Assembly: GCF_017347085.1 (NCBI RefSeq)
Contig: NZ_JADPSA010000019.1
Location: forward strand, 1-64,000
Length of the DNA: 64,000 nucleotides
Origin: Nesterenkonia sp. E16_10
GTDB taxonomy: Bacteria > Actinomycetota > Actinomycetes > Actinomycetales > Micrococcaceae
Direction: 5' to 3'
Below are positions 1-40,572 of the stretch, in pieces. A program made the translations under genes and the position numbers. The notes under the pieces were generated by a model, which worked only from the letters and a program-made list of their open reading frames with translations, ran no database searches and had not been told where the DNA came from. Each line of letters opens with the position of its first letter. Position 1 is the stretch's first letter.

Positions 1-87
1 CCGATGGGCTATGCCGGGGCGATGGCCGCGCTGGTCTACGGCATCTGGTTCTTCCTGGCGATCGAGGGCGTCCCGCTGGCCGCCGAG
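1..87 (+). pseudogene. Amino-acid/ethanolamine permease fragment (APC family)
   Basis: Read on the plus strand from base 1, the first 29 codons give a hydrophobic stretch containing YGIWFFLAIEGVPLAAE. This is typical of one transmembrane segment plus the following conserved loop in APC-superfamily permeases of the ethanolamine permease type. After AAE the expected continuation (another Glu and a charged loop) is missing, and the sequence becomes antisense to lysA. It is therefore a fragment joined to lysA in opposite orientation around bases 79-87. Either the permease extends to the left of the window and is truncated here, or the join is an assembly chimera. Permease identity rests on one motif only. 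Confidence 0.5.
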
Positions 88-31977: not shown

Positions 31978-33074
31978 TGCTCTACCTGGACGAGTCCGCG
32001 GCCGCGCCGGTCCGGCGCGAGGTGCTCGAAGCGATGTGGCCACACCTGACCGGTTATGCGAACCCCTCCAGCGTCCACGAGCCAGGGGCCGCGGCGTCGA
32101 GGGCGCTGGAGGCCGCGCGCGCCGAGGTCGCCCGGCACCTGAACGCGCGACCGGCTGAGATCATCTTCACCTCCGGCGGCACCGAATCCGACAATGCGGC
32201 GATCAAGGGCATCGCGCTCGCCGATCCCCGGGGACGCCACGTGCTGATCTCCGCGCTGGAGCACCCGGCGGTGAGCGAATCGGCCGCCTGGCTGGGCCGG
32301 CTGGGCTACGAGGTGGAGACGGTTCCGGTGGACACCGACGGCGTGGTCACCCCGGCCGCACTGGCCGCGAGGCTGCGCCCCGACACGACCCTGGTGTCCA
32401 TCCATTACGCGAATAATGAGGTCGGCACCGTCCAAGACATCGCCGCCCTCGCCGCGGTCTGCGCCGACCATCGCGTGCCGTTCCACACCGACGCGGTCCA
32501 GGCGGCCGGGACCCTGCCACTGGATGTGCAGGCCCTCGGTGTCAGTGCGATGAGCCTTGCCGGGCACAAGCTCGGCACACCGAAGGGCACCGGGGTGCTC
32601 TACCTGCGCCGTCGGACGCCGTTCGAACCACTGATCCACGGCGGTGGCCAGCAGCGGGACCTGCGCTCGGGCACCGAGAACGTCGCCGGAGCCGTCGGGA
32701 TGGCCACGGCGCTGCGGCTGGCCGCCGAGACCGACGTGGCGGAGATCGCGCGACGTCGCGATGGGTTCATCGACGAGGTCCTCACCCGGGTGCCCGGCGC
32801 GCAGCTGACCGGTCACCGCACCCAGCGCCTGGCCGGACACGCGTCCTTCGTGCTGCCCGGACGCAGCGGAGAGTCGGTGCTGCTGGACCTGGAGAGGCAG
32901 GGGATCTTCTGCTCCTCCGGCTCGGCCTGCGCCGCGGGCTCCAGTGAGCCCAGCCCCGCCTTGAGGGCGATGGGGTACTCGAAGGAGATCGCCCAGACCG
33001 CCGTGCGGTTCAGCTTCGGGGGTTCTGTGACCTCCGAGGACCTGGCCCACGCCGCAGCGGCGCTGCCGAATTGA
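31977..33074 (+). CDS. Cysteine desulfurase (NifS/IscS-like) of the NAD operon
   Basis: 365-aa PLP enzyme. Lys in SLAGHKLGTPKGTG, SGGTESDNAAIKG at the N-terminus, HTDAVQAAGTLP, and the active Cys in IFCSSGSACAAGSSEPS. In many Actinobacteria this gene completes nadA-nadB-nadC, providing sulfur for the NadA cluster. Starts 1 bp overlapping nadC. A role limited to NadA maturation is inference from synteny. Confidence 0.92.
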   Translation: MLYLDESAAAPVRREVLEAMWPHLTGYANPSSVHEPGAAASRALEAARAEVARHLNARPAEIIFTSGGTESDNAAIKGIALADPRGRHVLISALEHPAVSESAAWLGRLGYEVETVPVDTDGVVTPAALAARLRPDTTLVSIHYANNEVGTVQDIAALAAVCADHRVPFHTDAVQAAGTLPLDVQALGVSAMSLAGHKLGTPKGTGVLYLRRRTPFEPLIHGGGQQRDLRSGTENVAGAVGMATALRLAAETDVAEIARRRDGFIDEVLTRVPGAQLTGHRTQRLAGHASFVLPGRSGESVLLDLERQGIFCSSGSACAAGSSEPSPALRAMGYSKEIAQTAVRFSFGGSVTSEDLAHAAAALPN

Positions 33075-33194
33075 AGAGCCCCCGCGCAGGCGTAAGGTGA
33101 TCAAGGGCCGACCTGCTGTCTTCACCGGCGGGCCTGCCAGATGTTTCAGCCCCAGATGTTCTAGCCACTGACACTTTGATCTCCAGGAGCCACC

Positions 33195-34232
33195 ATGTAC
33201 GTTCCCGCAGAAGACCGTTACGAGAACGCGGAGTACCGCCGCGTGGGCCGCTCCGGCCTGGTGCTGCCGCCGCTCTCACTGGGGCTCTGGCACAACTTCG
33301 GCGATGACTTCGCCCTGGAGAACCAGCGCGAGATCATCCACCTGGCCTTCGACCATGGGATCACCCACTTCGACCTGGCCAACAACTACGGGCCTCCCCC
33401 AGGATCGGCGGAGATCAACTTCGGACGGATCCTGCGCGAGGACTTCGCCGGTCTGCGCGATGAACTGGTGATCTCCACCAAGGCCGGCTGGACCATGTGG
33501 CCCGGCCCCTACGGCGGCCCCACCGGCAGCCGCAAGCACCTGCTCACCAGCCTGGACCAGTCGCTGAGCCGGATGGGCCTGGACTACGTGGACATCTTCT
33601 ACTCCCACCGTCCCGACGCCGACACTCCGCTGGAGGAGACGATGTCCGCCCTGGATGCGGCGGTGCGTTCCGGTAAGGCGCTCTACGCCGGGATCTCCTC
33701 CTACTCCGCGGAAGACACCATCAAGGCCGCCGCGATCCTGAAGGATCTGGGCACCCCGCTGCTGATCCACCAGCCCTCCTACTCGATGCTCAACCGCTGG
33801 ATCGAGACCGAGGGCCTGCTCGACGCCGTGGAAGAAGTCGGGGCAGGCGTCATCGGCTTCAGTGCACTGGCCCAGGGCATGCTGACCGATAAGTACCTCG
33901 ACGGAGTGCCCTCGGACTCGCGCGCCGCGACCAAGGGCTCGTTCCGCGATGACTTCCTCACCGAAGAGAACCTCGGACACATCCGGGCGCTCAACGAGAT
34001 CGCCTCGAACCGTGACCAGAGCCTGGCGCAGATGGCGCTGGCCTGGGCGCTGCGCGATGACCGGGTGAGCTCCCTGGTGATCGGCGCCAGCCGGCCCGAG
34101 CAGCTCAAGTCCAACCTGGCGGCGCTGGAGAAGCGCTCGTTCAGCGCCGAAGAGCTGAAGGCGATCGATGAGCACGCCGTCGACGGCGGCATCGACATCT
34201 GGGGCTCGGCTCGGAAGAGCACGAAGGGCTGA
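33195..34232 (+). CDS. Aldo/keto reductase (YghZ/Kv-beta type)
   Basis: 345 aa with a TIM-barrel AKR fold: YRRVGRSGLVLPPLSLGLW, DLANNYGPPPGSAEINFG (catalytic Asp-Tyr), KAGWTMWPGPYG (Lys), DIFYSHRPDADTPLEET (His) and LVIGASRPEQLKSNL for NADPH. The GPPPGSAE and WPGPYG motifs point to L-glyceraldehyde-3-phosphate reductase-like members (YghZ). Methylglyoxal detoxification is one likely role. It precedes tRNA-Pro. Confidence 0.92.
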   Translation: MYVPAEDRYENAEYRRVGRSGLVLPPLSLGLWHNFGDDFALENQREIIHLAFDHGITHFDLANNYGPPPGSAEINFGRILREDFAGLRDELVISTKAGWTMWPGPYGGPTGSRKHLLTSLDQSLSRMGLDYVDIFYSHRPDADTPLEETMSALDAAVRSGKALYAGISSYSAEDTIKAAAILKDLGTPLLIHQPSYSMLNRWIETEGLLDAVEEVGAGVIGFSALAQGMLTDKYLDGVPSDSRAATKGSFRDDFLTEENLGHIRALNEIASNRDQSLAQMALAWALRDDRVSSLVIGASRPEQLKSNLAALEKRSFSAEELKAIDEHAVDGGIDIWGSARKSTKG

Positions 34233-34424
34233 TCGCTCCATAAGAGTGAACCTGGCAGGTGGGGCGCAGATGCGTCCGCGCCCCACCCGCCAGAATCCGG
34301 CGTCGCAGGTCCCGCACCTGTTCTCGGACCTGATGCAGCATCGGCTGCTGAGCCCGATGCGCGCTTGAGCCGGATCATGCGGTAGACTTTCCTGGTGCTT
34401 CCGGCGAGTTTGCAGGAAACATTT

Positions 34425-34501
34425 CGGGCTATAGCGCAGCTTGGTAGCGCGTCCGTCTGGGGGACGGAAGGTCGTGGGTTCAAATCCCGCTAGCCCGACC
34501 A
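34425..34501 (+). tRNA. tRNA-Pro (anticodon GGG), island insertion site
   Basis: Cloverleaf: acceptor CGGGCTA/TAGCCCG, D arm GCGCAGCTTGGTAGCGC, anticodon stem TCCGT/ACGGA with loop CTGGGGG (anticodon GGG), T arm GTGGGTTCAAATCCC; discriminator A and CCA encoded at 34498-34501. Its 3' half from 34460 is repeated at 38538, marking an insertion site. The tRNA stays intact because the inserted DNA supplies a new 3' end. Confidence 0.97.
34460..34483 (+). repeat. Direct repeat copy 1 (att-like, in tRNA-Pro)
   Basis: 24-bp stretch of tRNA-Pro from the anticodon loop through the T loop, starting GGGGACGGAAGG and ending GGGTTCAA. Identical to 38538-38561. Confidence 0.85.
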
Positions 34502-34550: not shown

Positions 34551-34756
34551 TCATCGTCCAATGAGCTCGATCTTGGCGACTCGCAGACACTTACTAGTGA
34601 CTTTACAAGCGACTTAGGTCCGAAGTGTCAGAGGCCACATACGGCTACCTATGGCGCGCATACCTGCGGAATTTAGACACAGTCCGGGGCATATCCTAAG
34701 CAACTGACATCCTGGTCCCATGACCGCCCGCTCCCGGAACTTCTGATCTACGGTGA

Positions 34757-34864
34757 GCACTACATCACCCCGACGAGGCGCAGTCCACCCCGCACCGCCG
34801 CGAAACCTATATCCGTGGGGAGCTCCTGGACCTGGGCGCGGTCGACGCGAAGGCCACCCGTTGA
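34757..34864 (+). pseudogene. Remnant ORF without a start
   Basis: An open stretch of 35 codons after an in-frame TGA reads HHPDEAQSTPHRRETYIRGE followed by LLDLGAVDAKATR and a stop. It is hydrophilic and helix-like, more protein-like than the other frames, but has no start codon. It looks like the 3' end of a decayed mobile-element gene, followed 12 bp later by the small ORF at 34877. Not recognised. The region 34551-34756 holds nothing else I can support. Confidence 0.3.
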
Positions 34865-34876
34865 ACGGAGACCCGC

Positions 34877-34996
34877 GTGCTAATCCTGTGGGTGAATGCG
34901 GACCACGACAATCAGTCCGCATGGGTGCCGGCCGACTGGGTCAAGCGGATCGACCGGAGCGAGTCGCGATGGCAGGATCCGCATGATCTGGAGTAG
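34877..34996 (+). CDS. Small ORF, 39 aa, island
   Basis: GTG start with GGAG six bases upstream. The peptide contains WVPADWVKRIDRSESRWQDP and is Trp/Asp rich with normal residue balance. It follows the remnant ORF so closely that the two may have been translationally coupled. Could be a real small protein or the tail of a broken gene. No promoter is apparent in the remaining stretch to 35111. Confidence 0.4.
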   Translation: MLILWVNADHDNQSAWVPADWVKRIDRSESRWQDPHDLE

Positions 34997-35111: not shown

Positions 35112-35999
35112 TTGCCGCAATGGTCTCTCGCCGCATTCGGTGCGCGCTGGCTCCGCAATCGACGCCTCCTCTACGACATTGCCATCCGTTATGGACAAAG
35201 CCTTCAAGTGGATCCCCGCCGGAAAGTCACCGGCACTCTCATCGTGCTCGTGGTCACCGCGGGATGCGTAACGGGCATGGCCGCGACTCAGTTCGTCTGG
35301 AGTTATTGGTGGTTGTTCGCGGTCGGGGCGTTCATCGCCCAGATATGGGCCGCACTCCGAGAAGCCTGTGAAGCTTTCTACGAGATTGAAACTGAGGCGG
35401 ATGAGCGCGTAGTGCGTGTTGCATCACGGTCGCTCTCCGAAAACTTGAGACAAGTCCAGTCGAAAGTGGCCGAACTCTCTCAGAAGACTCCCGCCAAGAG
35501 GCCGGAGTTCAGCGTCGAGGTAGCAAACCTGGTTGTGGGTACGATCCTCGGCACTTACAAGGACCTAAGCGGCGCTCGAGTGACGGTTTTCCTGATGGAA
35601 GAGAACCACTGGAGAACCGAACCCCTCGTCTCGAGAGGACGCGCAGACCAACCGCGGCCTTTTCTGAACAACACGGACGCTCGAAGCGAAGCGTTTTATG
35701 AGTGGGCGCTAGGAAACGACAAGAGCCCGCGGTTCGAGTCCGATACCGAACTAAGCGGTGGGCATCCGGACAAGCACCAGGGTGGTCGATACAGGACCTA
35801 TGTGAGCGCGTTGATCTACAACAGCCTCGGCATCTATGGCATGCTGAGCGTAGACGCTGCAGCTCCGGCGTCTATCGATGAGGAAGATAAGCACCTCATA
35901 CAGGCATTCGCTGGTGAACTCGCAACCGCGTTCACCATCCAGCGGCCTGACGCACTGCCTGCCAACACCAAAAGTCCTATCTCAAAAAGAAATAGGTGA
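35112..35999 (+). CDS. Two-TM protein with GAF-like domain, island
   Basis: 295 aa from TTG 35112. Residues about 40-85 hold two adjacent hydrophobic segments (VTGTLIVLVVTAGCVTGMAA and WWLFAVGAFIAQIWAALREA). Residues 85-125 are a charged helix (SENLRQVQSKVAELSQK, likely coiled coil). The C-terminal 160 residues look like a GAF domain: FSVEVANLVVGTILGTYKDLS at the start and IYGMLSVDAAAP...DKHLIQAFAGELATAF at the end. No output domain follows. It is directly followed (5 bp) by a 48-aa basic ORF. Low GC. The start could also be internal. Function unknown; a membrane-bound sensor is inference. Confidence 0.6.
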   Translation: MPQWSLAAFGARWLRNRRLLYDIAIRYGQSLQVDPRRKVTGTLIVLVVTAGCVTGMAATQFVWSYWWLFAVGAFIAQIWAALREACEAFYEIETEADERVVRVASRSLSENLRQVQSKVAELSQKTPAKRPEFSVEVANLVVGTILGTYKDLSGARVTVFLMEENHWRTEPLVSRGRADQPRPFLNNTDARSEAFYEWALGNDKSPRFESDTELSGGHPDKHQGGRYRTYVSALIYNSLGIYGMLSVDAAAPASIDEEDKHLIQAFAGELATAFTIQRPDALPANTKSPISKRNR

Positions 36000-36004
36000 A
36001 CTCG

Positions 36005-36151
36005 ATGACCCCTCCGAGGAAGCTCTCGACCACTGAGCTCAAGAAGGCCAGCGAGCAGCAGAAGCGTATTCGTGAGCAGCTAAAAGCGGAGCAGAAACGT
36101 AGAGACGCCGCACGCTTGCAACGAATGTCTGCCCGTCGCTCGCACGCCTAG
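36005..36151 (+). CDS. Small basic helical ORF, 48 aa, island
   Basis: ATG 36005 with AGGTGA five bases upstream, 5 bp after the stop of the GAF-like gene. The peptide (LKKASEQQKRIREQLKAEQK, then RRDAARLQRM) is very basic and alpha-helical, with no hydrophobic core. Likely co-translated with the GAF-like protein. Could bind nucleic acid or that partner; unknown family. Confidence 0.5.
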   Translation: MTPPRKLSTTELKKASEQQKRIREQLKAEQKRRDAARLQRMSARRSHA

Positions 36152-36683: not shown

Positions 36684-37709
36684 TTGCTGTATCACCCAAT
36701 AATGAACGGAAAATCCGGGGAACTCTTGGCCTGGAAGAACGCATCTCTTTCCTGCCGCGAAGTTACGGGGCCTCTCTTCGAGGTGCCGCTGACGGACGCC
36801 GGACCCGAAGAGAGCCTGACCAAGTTCGTGCGCAATCTAATGGACGCCAGTCGACCAGGCGACATAGTCGGGTTGGACACCAGCTTGTATTCCGACCCCA
36901 AAATTTCCAGCGCAGCCGAGTCTTTGAATGCTGCGGGCGTATCGGTTCGGTTCGTGATTCGTCCCGGTCAGGATCGTGACCTCGCCAGATCCCTGACGGA
37001 GTCATCGCAGGATGGACAGCCAATTCTTCGGATCGGAGGCAACGACTCTGACCCCGAATCTGATGAAGATGAGATCCAGGCCGTTCTTGAGGGTGTGGAA
37101 TTGGACCCACGGAACGTCCATCTACTGATCGACCTTGGAGCTATCCATGGCACTCCCGTGGCCCCCGTGCGCGCTATAACTCGAGCCCACTTAACTCGCG
37201 CAATGGAACACGGTTCGTGGGCGTCCGCGACGCTGGCTTTGGGCGCGTTCCCTCAACAGATAACGGATGTTCCGAAAGGGCAGGTCAACCCTATCGATAG
37301 AGCAGACGCTCTAGTGTGGAATCAAGTACATGGCGCGTACGGTTCTCTGGACTTAAGATTTGGGGACTACGGAATTCGCCATCCAGAACTGCCAGTGAGT
37401 AGTCCCTTCACACGGGGACCGTTGCCGAACCTTCGATACACCGCAGAAAATGAGTGGATGGTGTGGCGCGAAGCCAAGATTACCGGCTCCGAGACGCAAG
37501 GGCCGAATGAATCCTTCTACACTGTATGCGCCAACGTAGTGGCCCTACCGGAGTTCTCAGGCCGAAACTACTCCTGGGGCGACGAGCAGATTTACGCCCG
37601 CCGCGGCGGGAGCGGCGGCCAGGGCACTGCTGTCCAGTGGATCGCCTACGGAACTAGTCATCACCTGGAGTTCGTATCAAACCGCCTGACCACGACGGGC
37701 GCTGCTTGA
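36684..37709 (+). CDS. sce7725-like / beta-family protein, island
   Basis: 341 aa from TTG 36684, which has AAAGGA eight bases upstream. The start YHPIMNGKSGELLAWKN and the later GPLFEVPL match the Beta_protein family (T4 beta protein type), in which a short Y-x-P...GK-x-GE motif is followed by PLFE. The rest has a TIM-barrel-like rhythm of strands and helices (GDIVGLDTSLY, VHLLIDLGAIHG, GSWASATLALGAFP). Family proteins of sce7725 type pair with sce7726-type nuclease-like proteins. Here the partner is convergent and the 3' ends overlap by 56 bp. GC and codon use are island-like. Biochemical role unknown. Confidence 0.72.
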   Translation: MLYHPIMNGKSGELLAWKNASLSCREVTGPLFEVPLTDAGPEESLTKFVRNLMDASRPGDIVGLDTSLYSDPKISSAAESLNAAGVSVRFVIRPGQDRDLARSLTESSQDGQPILRIGGNDSDPESDEDEIQAVLEGVELDPRNVHLLIDLGAIHGTPVAPVRAITRAHLTRAMEHGSWASATLALGAFPQQITDVPKGQVNPIDRADALVWNQVHGAYGSLDLRFGDYGIRHPELPVSSPFTRGPLPNLRYTAENEWMVWREAKITGSETQGPNESFYTVCANVVALPEFSGRNYSWGDEQIYARRGGSGGQGTAVQWIAYGTSHHLEFVSNRLTTTGAA

Positions 37710-38253
37710 GGCGGTTGAGCACGACGCTGCGAAGCTCGTTCTTCGGGAGCTCACGCGAGAGTTCGGCCCACAAGCGATAGCGCGGTTTGGAACTCAGGCC
37801 GGCTTCCAGGCCGCGCAGCTTAAGCTCCTGCCATGTCTCATCTCTCCAAAGCAGCTGAGCGATGGCGAGTGGATCAGTGTTGCGGTTGACTCGTGGGCGT
37901 CGTCTTTGGGTTAGCTTGACGGAATCCGAGCTCGTGACCATTGCCGCCTCGACCACTCCCCATTCTTTGGGTAGCAGCTGTTCCACCCGAGCTAGGAACT
38001 TTGCGGTAGTGACGATAGTGAGGTAGTCCATCACCTTCCCGAATGCTTCCGCTTGGTCGCCAAGGCGCGCTAGCGTGTCGCGGTCACTCTTGATCTCCCA
38101 CCCGGCGAAGTGACCGTTGAGTACCGCGACATCCACCCGTCTTGCCCCGTTGTCAACGCCTAGTTCGTGACGGACAACAGCTCCAGGAACATCTCGATTG
38201 CTTCGGCGAAGTCGGGAATCGAGGGCTTGTCGAATTACGAGGTCATCGAGCAT
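37654..38253 (-). CDS. sce7726-like protein, PD-(D/E)XK nuclease-like, island
   Basis: 199 aa from ATG 38253 (GAGGA four bases upstream; a GTG 27 bases earlier is possible). It has the nuclease-like core: Glu30 (VRHELGV), Asp41 in RRVDVAVLNG, and Glu53-x-Lys55 in GWEIKSDRDTLARL, followed by QAEAFGKVMDYLTIV. That is the sce7726 family pattern. The C-terminal half (LAIAQLLWRDE, RLWAELSREL) is helical. Its 3' end overlaps the sce7725-like gene on the other strand. Likely DNA-acting; involvement in phage defence is inference from family and island setting. Confidence 0.75.
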   Translation of the reverse strand: MLDDLVIRQALDSRLRRSNRDVPGAVVRHELGVDNGARRVDVAVLNGHFAGWEIKSDRDTLARLGDQAEAFGKVMDYLTIVTTAKFLARVEQLLPKEWGVVEAAMVTSSDSVKLTQRRRPRVNRNTDPLAIAQLLWRDETWQELKLRGLEAGLSSKPRYRLWAELSRELPKNELRSVVLNRLKQRPSWSGGLIRTPGDD

Positions 38254-38537
38254 GGAGTCCTCACGAAAAGTCTCAGGCACTCAGACAGTATGCCACCGGC
38301 CCTCTTGCACGTGCGACAGTCTCCCGGGTGTTGCAGCGGTCAAGTGGTTGATGGCCCCCGTCAGGGTCGAAACGGCGAGATGGATCATGAATTGAAAGCT
38401 CGTTGTTCAACCAGGTGGCCGGGTGCGGGATGAACCGCCTCCCCCGGGAGATTGGGCCCCGAATAGGCCTTGGCCCCTGGACGATCCGCTCTGGGGCTGC
38501 GCGCTTCTCCTTGACTGTTTGCTTGAACGCCCCGCCC
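38254..38537. other. Island right flank without genes
   Basis: Between the sce7726-like start and the right repeat I see no supported gene. The first part must contain the promoter of the nuclease-like gene. From 38440 GC rises and no tRNA body precedes the repeat, so the right copy is a fragment only. Confidence 0.5.
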
Positions 38538-38561
38538 GGGGACGGAAGGTCGTGGGTTCAA
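38538..38561 (+). repeat. Direct repeat copy 2 (att-like, right end)
   Basis: Perfect copy of 34460-34483 (3' half of tRNA-Pro). The following bases (GTCACGCTAGCCGACCGAACAC) resemble the tRNA tail but carry several differences, so this copy has drifted since insertion and could not fold as a tRNA. Confidence 0.85.
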
Positions 38562-38585
38562 GTCACGCTAGCCGACCGAACACAA

Positions 38586-38622
38586 GGAAAGCCTCAAACC
38601 CTCTGATGGTTTGAGGCTTTCC
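38586..38622. terminator. Strong bidirectional terminator
   Basis: Perfect 15-bp stem (GGAAAGCCTCAAACC with GGTTTGAGGCTTTCC), 7-nt loop, followed by CCCTTTTC on the plus strand. It lies 30 bp from the convergent solute-binding protein stop. Its place just after the right tRNA repeat suggests it was the original tRNA-Pro terminator, displaced by the island. Confidence 0.85.
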
Positions 38623-38651
38623 CTTTTCGCCTGCTTAGCTACGCCCCGCTA

Positions 38652-40304
38652 TCACTGAGCCCGCTCATGGGCCTCATTGGCCAGGTCCACGAGCTGCTGC
38701 ATGTTCAGGTTCTCCAGCTCGGCGAGATACGCATCCCAGTCATCGAAGGACCGCTGACCCAGGATGAACTGCGAGGAGGCGGTCTGCACATGATCCGTCA
38801 GCGTCGTCTGCAGCAGGCCAGCCTGCTCCAGCTCGAGATCGGTGAACGGATACGGCGGGGTCACCGGGAGCTCCTCCTTGTCATGCATCTTCTCCTGCCA
38901 CTCGACCACGTGCGGGCGGAAGGTTGAGTGCACCAGCTCGGTGGTGGAACCCACCGCGTGGAGGAACGGCTGGTTGGAGAAGCCGTAGTCCCGCACCAGG
39001 TGCTCGTCGGCCTCGGGGTTCAGGCTGTTGAGGTCGATGTTCGAGTCCAGCTCGCGCTCGCCATCGGCGTTGAGCGTGTAGGTCTCTCCCTCCACGCCCC
39101 AGGTGGCGTACTCCAGGCCCTCGTCCGAGTAGTACAGCCAGTCGATGAACTGCAGCTTGGCGAGGAAGTCGTCATCCTCGGCGATGGAGGAAGAGATGGC
39201 GAGCCCGCTGTCGAAGCGTGCCCCGCTGTGTACGAAGTCCCCGTCCTCGCCGCCGGGGATCGGGATGAGCCGCGCCTCGGCACCCTCGGTGCCGAGCTCC
39301 TCGAATCCACGGGTGTAGATCTGGGTGGACTCGTCATTGCCCGCAATGGCCAGCGAGCTGCCCGAGGAGAACTTCTGCTCGGCCATGCGATCATCCTGAG
39401 TCAGTGTCTCTGAGTCCATCAGGCCCTCCTCGAGGAGGCCGGCGAAGAACTCCAGGAGTTCGCGGTACTCATCGGAGGCTCCGGCGTAGATGAACTCATC
39501 GGCCTCATGATCGAAGTAAATGCCATCCCCGTAGCCCCAGCCGGCAACGGTGTTGAAGTTGGCCGAGGCGAAGTTCAGCGTGCTCTGCAGCTCCCAGCGA
39601 TCGGAATACGGGACCGAATCCGGGTACTCCTCCTTGACCTCGCGCAGCTGATCCGCAAACTCCTCCCAGGTCTCGGGATCTTCGAAGCCCATCTCGTCCC
39701 AGATGTCGCCGCGGACCACCAGCGAGAAGTGCTGGAAGGGATCCTCCAGCAGACCGGGAAGGATGTAGGCGTTTCCGTCCTCCTGGTAGAGCGCCTCATA
39801 GTCCTCACGCAGATCCCAGGCGTCGAGCTTCTCGGTGAAGTTCGGCATGTGCTCCAGATAGTCACTGACCGGCAGCAGCGCCCCGCCAGAGATATAGGGC
39901 ACCTCCTGACCGGGATAGGTCACCGGAACGAAATCGGGCATGTCTCCTGCGCCGATCACCAGGGACCGCCGCTGCTCGAAGTCGCTCAGCGGCGCATCCA
40001 CGATCGAAAGCGACACATTGTGGTTCTCTTCGAGGTGTTCGAAGAACATCCACTCGTCGTCCAACCCATGGTCGGGGTTGTTGCGGTAGAGCACCGAAAG
40101 CTCCAGGGGCTCGGTGGCCACAAAGCTGTCTCCGGCCCCGAAGTCGGCCATGGCCGCCAGGTCACGCTCGCCGGCATCTACGCCCGCATCATCGCCGGCG
40201 TCACCCCCGCCGCAGCTGGTGGCCAGCAGCGAGCCGGCCGCGATCAGCCCCACCACACCGGTCCGGGACCTACGGTTTCGATTTTTAGCTGTCATAGTCT
40301 GCAC
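38652..40304 (-). CDS. Extracellular solute-binding lipoprotein (ABC, LipO-like)
   Basis: 550-aa binding protein. Signal peptide with lipobox ATSC (Cys31), then a D/G/A-rich linker. The fold is family 1 type: DFEQRRSLVIGAGDMPDFVPV, GALLPVSDYLEHMPNFTEKL, PETWEEFADQLREVKEEYP, QFIDWLYYSDEGLEYATWG. Size and motifs fit oligosaccharide-binding LipO/lacto-N-biose-type proteins. No permease or sugar kinase lies nearby, so it is an orphan here. ATG 40304 or the ATG nine bases later could start it. Upstream 40305-40572 is AT-rich and must hold promoters for this gene and the divergent ABC exporter. Confidence 0.9.
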   Translation of the reverse strand: MQTMTAKNRNRRSRTGVVGLIAAGSLLATSCGGGDAGDDAGVDAGERDLAAMADFGAGDSFVATEPLELSVLYRNNPDHGLDDEWMFFEHLEENHNVSLSIVDAPLSDFEQRRSLVIGAGDMPDFVPVTYPGQEVPYISGGALLPVSDYLEHMPNFTEKLDAWDLREDYEALYQEDGNAYILPGLLEDPFQHFSLVVRGDIWDEMGFEDPETWEEFADQLREVKEEYPDSVPYSDRWELQSTLNFASANFNTVAGWGYGDGIYFDHEADEFIYAGASDEYRELLEFFAGLLEEGLMDSETLTQDDRMAEQKFSSGSSLAIAGNDESTQIYTRGFEELGTEGAEARLIPIPGGEDGDFVHSGARFDSGLAISSSIAEDDDFLAKLQFIDWLYYSDEGLEYATWGVEGETYTLNADGERELDSNIDLNSLNPEADEHLVRDYGFSNQPFLHAVGSTTELVHSTFRPHVVEWQEKMHDKEELPVTPPYPFTDLELEQAGLLQTTLTDHVQTASSQFILGQRSFDDWDAYLAELENLNMQQLVDLANEAHERAQ

Positions 40305-40572
40305 GCCTTTTCCCTCATACAGCTCACATGATTTTGTATCTTCGTGATACAGATCACACTCAGTATAGGGTCACACCATGCAACTATTTCAAGGGCCATC
40401 TTCACACCGGCGATTTTCACCGGTTCCCCACGCCGGCCAGACCTCCAGATCCACGGGCCTTGCCGTGCCCTGCTCACGCTCCTATTCTGAGTCCACCCGG
40501 AGATCTGGGCGCCTGGCGCGGGTGTGAGCCACCGCTGGCACGATTTGCTTCACACCCTCCTAGGGAGCCGCC

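What the first reader, a model, noticed from the sequence alone, without database searches (positions are those of the whole stretch)
36684..38253. Convergent sce7725/sce7726-like pair with overlapping 3' ends: candidate defence module
A beta-family protein (GK-x-GE, PLFEV) and a PD-(D/E)XK-like protein (E30, D41, E53-x-K55) lie tail-to-tail with 56 bp of overlap inside a mobile island. As far as I recall these two families occur together, and their function is not established. The overlap means neither gene can lose its end without harming the other, and antisense transcription may couple them. Placement in a tRNA island fits phage or plasmid defence.
Basis: partly seen in the sequence, partly recalled or inferred. 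Interest (0 to 1): 0.75.

Follow-up and report, generated by a model that had tools for sequence, protein, structure and literature searches.

The report
Back-to-back overlapping phage-defence gene pair
A fragment of an old virus in this bacterium carries two genes that run towards each other and share their last letters, the same lock-step arrangement found in relatives from many bacterial phyla and related to gene sets already shown to protect bacteria from viruses.

Summary
In detail: two ORFs (36684-37709 +, 37654-38253 -) overlap tail-to-tail by 56 bp and the nuclease motif is there. The labels change. The + gene is PF14350 Beta_protein, not sce7725; the - gene is sce7726. Both belong to known defence systems, P4 gop-beta-cII (Rousset 2022) and PD-lambda-2 (Vassallo 2022), so association and function were partly established; here gop and PD-lambda-2 A/B are absent. 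The island is a 4.1-kb, integrase-less prophage remnant in tRNA-Pro, with a 42-bp repeat and an empty site in a relative. New here: the overlap is ancient. In 96 of 110 non-redundant loci the conserved beta His codon and the conserved cII Trp codon on the other strand are exactly 30 nt apart, at 28% median beta identity and across 13 phylum-level groups. In 80 of 105 assessable loci no ORF of 100 aa or more is tightly linked upstream of beta; others have different partners (XRE-peptidase, FRG, small membrane-type proteins, Gop). P4 is an outlier without the overlap. AlphaFold gives a PD-(D/E)XK nuclease (cII) and a TIM barrel (beta). Best reading: a gop-less variant of a known defence family. 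The mechanism and any role of the antisense overlap are inferred.

The parts
36684..37709 (+). beta-family protein (PF14350), predicted (beta/alpha)8 TIM barrel, 341 aa
37654..38253 (-). cII / sce7726-family protein, predicted PD-(D/E)XK nuclease, 199 aa from ATG 38253 (208 aa from GTG 38280)
37654..37709 (.). 56-bp antisense coding overlap of the two 3' ends; beta His codon 37662-37664, cII Trp codon 37690-37692
   Evidence: first bases of the two codons 30 nt apart, as in 96 of 110 clusters
34425..34501 (+). tRNA-Pro(GGG), integration site (left end of the island)
   Evidence: ARAGORN
38538..38579 (+). right-end direct repeat: imperfect copy of the last 42 bp of tRNA-Pro
   Evidence: repeat search; in relative G012 the right flank joins the tRNA-Pro 3' end directly (L003 1660-1701)
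34677..34993 (+). frame-broken remnant of a ~107-aa phage gene found shortly after the integrase in same-genus prophages
   Evidence: protein matches in several frames to L193, L194, L195; DNA match 74-80%; integrase in L194 and L195 by Pfam
35112..35999 (+). prophage cargo protein P0003: hydrophobic N-terminal segment, no family below E 0.01; probably separate from the pair
   Evidence: Pfam: only sub-threshold hits, GAF 0.077; hydrophobic window 39-57; 45% homologue right after the integrase of a tRNA-Arg prophage in G009
36005..36151 (+). small basic ORF (48 aa) following P0003
   Evidence: 53% match to the ORF that follows the P0003 homologue in L198

Best explanation
The pair is a gop-less, two-gene member of the beta/cII defence family (P4 gop-beta-cII, PD-lambda-2), left behind as cargo of a decayed prophage in tRNA-Pro. 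Shown here: family membership, intact nuclease motif, predicted folds, prophage-remnant context, and an antisense overlap kept in one register across bacteria. From the literature: relatives protect E. coli from phages; Gop of P4 is toxic without beta, and PD-lambda-2C is needed for defence but not for toxin neutralisation. Inferred: cII is the effector, a PD-(D/E)XK nuclease that cuts phage or cell DNA; beta, a TIM barrel with conserved charged residues at the strand ends, is the ligand-sensing regulator that holds it (or, in other loci, a Gop, HigB/XRE-peptidase or FRG partner) in check until infection. The overlapping ends keep the two genes moving as one unit; whether the antisense transcripts also regulate each other is open.
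For: Family hits; published defence activity of relatives (passages); P4 itself has beta and cII convergent; 153 of 160 collection loci have the convergent partner; register exactly 30 nt in 96 of 110 clusters, while the six loci with 35 nt form one supported group; nuclease fold and invariant E/D/E-x-K; TIM barrel; different upstream genes in different loci; empty site and prophage relatives.
Against: No two-gene form is known to me to have been tested against phage. In PD-lambda-2 the published system is A+B+C and cII is not mentioned in the passages read, so cII may not be the effector. P0001 misses PADLOC's 'beta' model (it hits PD-Lambda-2_C). The pair is rare: beta is in 3 of 396 genomes of the phylum, own included, and in none of the other 29 same-genus genomes, four of which are under 90% complete. 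Of 23 beta places looked at, 20 have cII and 3 do not (several plasmid records are near-copies). Four cII loci with room for it lack beta (L015, L093, L139, L176). The island has lost its integrase and holds a broken gene, so the element itself is decaying.
Confidence: 0.6

Rival explanations
1. Toxin-antitoxin-like addiction pair: cII is toxic alone and beta is its antitoxin; the main effect is maintenance of the phage or plasmid, with defence secondary.
For: Gop and beta are described as a likely toxin-antitoxin pair; the pair sits on phages and plasmids; an overlap prevents loss of one gene without damage to the other.
Against: Convergent genes with separate promoters are unusual for TA pairs (general knowledge); PD-lambda-2C is not needed to neutralise its toxin; cII occurs without beta in L015, L093, L139 and L176.
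Confidence: 0.2
2. The overlap is a frozen accident: an ancestral overlap cannot be undone without duplicating the shared stretch, so the fixed register reflects a mutational ratchet and has no regulatory role.
For: Overlap length varies from 19 to 159 bp although the register is fixed; only short conserved ends abut; a few lineages have no overlap: P4, L043/L148, L133.
Against: Pairs without overlap are rare (3 of 110 clusters) over great divergence; P4, which has none, has an annotated putative terminator between the genes, which may mean that transcription matters.
Confidence: 0.5
3. The convergent overlap is a selected excludon-like switch: beta (or toxin-beta) and cII transcripts silence each other by antisense pairing or polymerase collision.
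For: All 153 collection pairs are convergent and 150 overlap; overlapping transcription of convergent genes is a described form of regulation (passages of PMC7154746); in the one sister sce7726-sce7725 set seen whole the genes are co-directional and do not overlap.
Against: No RNA data; overlap length is not conserved; no promoter-like site and no more terminator-like sites than in shuffles were found in the island (that scan may not suit this organism).
Confidence: 0.25
4. Decayed prophage cargo with no present function.
For: Integrase lost, a neighbouring phage gene frame-broken, beta absent from 29 of 30 same-genus genomes.
Against: Both ORFs are full length with the conserved residues and the common register.
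Confidence: 0.15

Closest known systems
gop-beta-cII of satellite phage P4 (Rousset et al. 2022, PMC9122126, passages read)
   Same: Both beta (PF14350) and cII (sce7726) homologues; convergent order cII-> <-beta; carriage on a phage-type element
   Different: No gop here; P4 beta and cII do not overlap (27-bp gap with an annotated putative terminator); P4 beta is the longest branch of the tree, its place unsure; P0001 does not hit PADLOC's 'beta' model
PD-lambda-2 (Vassallo et al. 2022, PMC9519451, passages read)
   Same: P0001 matches the PD-Lambda-2_C model at 5e-36; the 12 loci with an XRE-peptidase-type gene just upstream of beta (one of them, L149, tested against PADLOC: PD-Lambda-2_B 3e-156) also have the convergent cII
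   Different: A (HigB-like) and B (XRE-peptidase) are absent here; cII is not mentioned as a part in the passages read
sce7726-sce7725 gene sets (NCBIfam NF033832 / NF033831)
   Same: cII is a true sce7726 member; sce7725 resembles beta weakly, in its C-terminal part (hhalign probability 33%, P 4.6e-4)
   Different: P0001 is not sce7725. In G097, the one complete set seen, sce7726 and sce7725 are co-directional with a RES-domain gene
SPO1766 (PDB 3dnx) and other PD-(D/E)XK proteins (PaqCI, Can2)
   Different: 18, 15 and 12% identity; the target is unknown and a shared fold shows no function

Membership tests
gop-beta-cII defence system | beta protein (PF14350) | tested here: met
   165.1 bits, cut-off 27; PADLOC's own 'beta' model not hit at E<=1, PD-Lambda-2_C hit instead
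gop-beta-cII defence system | cII protein | tested here: met
   PADLOC 'cll' 7.4e-33; NF033832 149.2 bits
gop-beta-cII defence system | gop toxin gene upstream of beta | tested here: not met
   No same-strand ORF of 60 aa or more stops from 60 nt past to 250 nt before the beta start; phmmer with Gop at E<=1 finds only P4 among the ORFs of L001-L188, which include the window island (L002)
PD-lambda-2 | HigB-like A and XRE-peptidase B in one operon with C | tested here: not met
   No such gene among the island ORFs and no ORF of 60 aa or more just upstream of beta
sce7726 family (NF033832) | curated score over cut-off | tested here: met
   149.2 bits against 70
sce7725 family (NF033831) | curated score over cut-off | tested here: not met
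   No hit at E<=1; no match in the whole genome G000
PD-(D/E)XK nuclease superfamily | fold and E...D...E-x-K motif | tested here: met
   AlphaFold model whose best matches are PD-(D/E)XK proteins (superfamily of 3dnx recalled); motif invariant in 73 sequences
PD-(D/E)XK nuclease superfamily | nuclease activity | not testable with these tools
   needs biochemistry
tRNA-integrated mobile island | tRNA 3'-end duplication and empty site | tested here: met
   Repeat; contiguous flanks sharing the tRNA-Pro 3' end in G012
tRNA-integrated mobile island | integrase gene | tested here: not met
   None among the island ORFs; present in the prophage at the same tRNA in G011 (L194)
anti-phage defence | protection against phage | not testable with these tools
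   only relatives were tested, in print

The most novel reading that the evidence does not exclude
Beta and cII alone form a widespread, self-standing immune module whose ancient antisense overlap is itself a selected device: the two convergent transcripts set each other's level and so hold the nuclease in balance, while third-gene toxins (Gop, HigB/XRE-peptidase, FRG) are later, exchangeable add-ons. The studied P4 system would then be a derived outlier.
Probability: 0.25. Interest if true: 0.8.

Novelty: new variant of a known kind. Interest (0 to 1): 0.6.

Why it matters
It ties two separately described defence systems (gop-beta-cII and PD-lambda-2) to one two-gene core with a conserved convergent layout, suggests that surveys requiring gop or PD-lambda-2 A/B would miss most of the copies sampled here, and offers a clear case of a long antisense coding overlap kept in a single register across many phyla. 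That makes two questions directly testable: is beta-cII a complete system, and does the overlap regulate it?

Tried and rejected
Rejected: sce7725 as the identity of the + gene. P0003 as an obligate third component: it ends 685 nt upstream of beta; its homologue in G009 sits in a prophage stretch without beta or cII (L198; G009 has no PF14350 match); no homologue among the ORFs of the other beta loci in L001-L188. Gop in disguise: none found. A solved structure by sequence: nothing convincing for beta (3 hits, best E 0.045, a designed protein), none at E<=1 for cII. P0003 relatives in viral contigs: none (close relatives only). The fold searches gave no specific enzyme family for the barrel, only TIM barrels in general.

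Limits. The scans keep the best 80 of 180 (viral) and 80 of 304 (genomes) loci, those closest to the cII alignment, so 78 of 80 and 75 of 80 with beta hold for this subfamily, not for all sce7726 proteins: of 5 sce7726 genomes in 392 (one under the cut-off), 2 have beta, 1 has sce7725, and 2 gave no beta hit in the short loci fetched. Some of the 153 beta ORFs are cut by a contig end or are broken or partial (for example L037, L049, L079, L104, L122, L129, L134, L145, L151). Dropped before the spacing count: of 118 clusters, 7 without beta and L049; 110 measured. The upstream test saw only ORFs of 100 aa or more, so short toxins (HigB-sized) could be missed; one search lists several ORFs of 60-99 aa close to beta, and beta starts are estimated from profile matches. 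A rough control, counted by eye from the tables: 19 other convergent gene pairs, 1 overlapping by 20 bp or more (L211, 34 bp, with a 68-aa hypothetical at most); small and not random. The tree is a quick one with 38 open forks and drawn with a midpoint root. GC does not set off the island on its right side.

Print. Searches listed no paper that I recognised as treating the beta/cII overlap; most listed papers were not opened, and subscription papers and preprints are largely not held. The 1990 P4 paper was not seen; its content is taken from the Rousset passages. Of PMC9122126, PMC9519451 and PMC7154746 passages were read, of PMC11291487 one passage; other papers only in listings.

Full report
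OBSERVATION. Beta runs 36684-37709 (+, TTG start); cII ends at 37654 and starts at ATG 38253 (-), with an in-frame GTG at 38280. They share 56 bp.

IDENTITY. The + gene is Pfam Beta_protein (3.9e-48) and matches PADLOC's PD-Lambda-2_C (5e-36); it does not match NCBIfam's sce7725 family at E<=1. The - gene is sce7726 (149 bits, cut-off 70) and matches PADLOC's 'cll' (7e-33), the model that P4's own cII hits at 3e-113. In phage P4 the same two genes are also convergent, with gop upstream of beta. Rousset et al. report that gop-beta-cII protects against lambda and P1 and that Gop is toxic without beta (passages). Vassallo et al. report that PD-lambda-2C, related to the P4 antitoxin, is needed against lambda-vir but not for toxin neutralisation (passages).

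SETTING. The pair lies in an island between tRNA-Pro (34425-34501) and an imperfect copy of its 3' end (38538-38579). In same-genus genome G012 the two flanks meet at one tRNA-Pro and share 42 bp: an empty site. No integrase is left. At 34677-34993 are remnants of a gene that lies shortly after the integrase in same-genus prophages L194 and L195 and in the tRNA-Ser element L193 of the own genome, where Pfam finds no integrase; P0003 and the small ORF behind it match, in order, the two ORFs after the integrase of a fourth (L198). L194 is an integrase-bearing prophage at the same tRNA-Pro in G011. GC falls from 64-72% over 32000-34499 to 56-61% between 34500 and 38499; on the right side the contrast is weak (60-64% over 38500-40499). 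So the island is a prophage remnant. In the actinophages Mycofy1, DumpsterDude and Powerball the pair also sits near the lysis or tail genes, in Powerball shortly before the integrase (the cII ORF is unannotated in the first two).

ASSOCIATION. A scan of viral contigs with a cII alignment kept the best 80 of 180 loci; 78 have a beta ORF next to cII, all convergent, 77 overlapping; of the 2 without, one contig ends at cII (L041). A scan of the genome collection kept the best 80 of 304; 75 have beta, all convergent, 73 overlapping; of the 5 without, 3 end at a contig edge. From the beta side, 16 of 18 plasmid records (by their annotation; several are near-copies), 2 of 2 phages and 2 of 3 genomes have cII: 20 of 23.

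THE OVERLAP IS ANCIENT. With the phage and plasmid records added, 176 cII loci fall into 118 clusters at 80% cII identity; 111 have beta and 110 could be measured. From the beta His codon (His in 109 of 110 sequences) to the cII Trp codon (Trp in 114 of 118) on the other strand the distance is exactly 30 nt in 96 clusters, 35 in 6, 33 in 3, and 55, 69, 70, 74 and 341 (P4) in one each. Of the 110, 107 overlap, by 19 to 159 bp; the median of all 110 is 47; the length is 2 modulo 3 in 100 of the 107. Among the 96, median pairwise identity is 28% for beta and 40% for cII. The 56 genome-collection clusters with exact spacing carry 13 phylum-level labels in the tree: Actinomycetota, Acidobacteriota, Bacillota, Pseudomonadota, Myxococcota, Bacteroidota, Planctomycetota, Nitrospirota, Chloroflexota, Gemmatimonadota, Bdellovibrionota, Thermodesulfobacteriota and Candidatus Falkowiibacteriota. 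In the same tree the 35-nt spacing is a single supported group among the 30-nt ones, so 30 nt is probably ancestral. The coupling shows in the letters: beta residue His+9 is A, S or T in all 96, which fits, since the antisense of a Trp codon (94 of the 96) allows only A, S, T or P there; and beta ends at His+14 in 52 of 96, where its stop codon lies opposite the Leu-Lys that is common in cII (Leu 86, Lys 77 of 96) (the codon argument is mine).

THIRD GENES. In 80 of the 105 assessable clusters (5 more lack room) no ORF of 100 aa or more stops within 40 nt upstream of the estimated beta start; 25 have one. Shorter toxins could be missed. Twelve of the 25 form one BLAST cluster; L149 of it matches PD-Lambda-2_B at 3e-156 and three others carry the M78 peptidase domain. 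Three are one FRG cluster (L188 tested). Others are small proteins with hydrophobic segments (L094, L123, L153) and P4 Gop; one (L022) is a transposase, and a few may be spurious ORFs. The XRE-peptidase gene, with HigB annotated in four cases, also occurs without beta or cII: 6 of 6 plasmid regions that I picked from the top of a list of 1031 records (two regions are cut at the record end), while other records in that list are the rhizobial ones with beta. The sister set sce7726-sce7725 in G097 is co-directional and followed by a RES-domain gene; sce7725 resembles beta only weakly by profile.

VERDICT. What is new, as far as the searches show, is the deep conservation of the antisense register and the picture of a two-gene core with optional toxins.

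Noticed in passing
L201 557-3482; L200 1486-2424 and 465-1484: sce7726-sce7725-RES gene set on one strand in L201 (sce7725-RES in L200, cut upstream): a co-directional sister of the beta-cII pair with a RES toxin-type domain as third gene.
   Followed up: partly
L112, L155, L188: FRG-type genes directly upstream of beta in three Acidobacteriota loci, one supported beta clade: a further candidate effector.
   Followed up: partly
L013 3450-4127 and L014 3372-4133: The cII ORF is missed in the Gordonia phage DumpsterDude record (gp32 is annotated on the other strand over it) and is called 'exonuclease' in Powerball.
   Followed up: partly
L023 2802-3290, L027 2886-3284: In two rhizobial plasmids the first gene of the PD-lambda-2-like operon is DUF6932 (PF22014), not a recognisable HigB: a possible new first component.
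   Followed up: no
L024 4995-6104, L026 4720-5828: Two Rhizobium plasmids have beta behind an XRE-peptidase-type gene but no cII found in the stretch; in R. bangladeshense beta is split into two ORFs.
   Followed up: no
window 35112-35999; L198 3731-4624: P0003, an unnamed protein with a hydrophobic N-terminal part and only sub-threshold GAF similarity, is cargo right after the integrase in a same-genus prophage; function unknown.
   Followed up: partly
L193, L194, L195, L198: Same-genus elements at tRNA-Ser, -Pro, -His and -Arg differ in the genes behind the integrase position (DUF3800 and FRG genes in L193): a likely cargo hotspot worth surveying for defence genes.
   Followed up: partly
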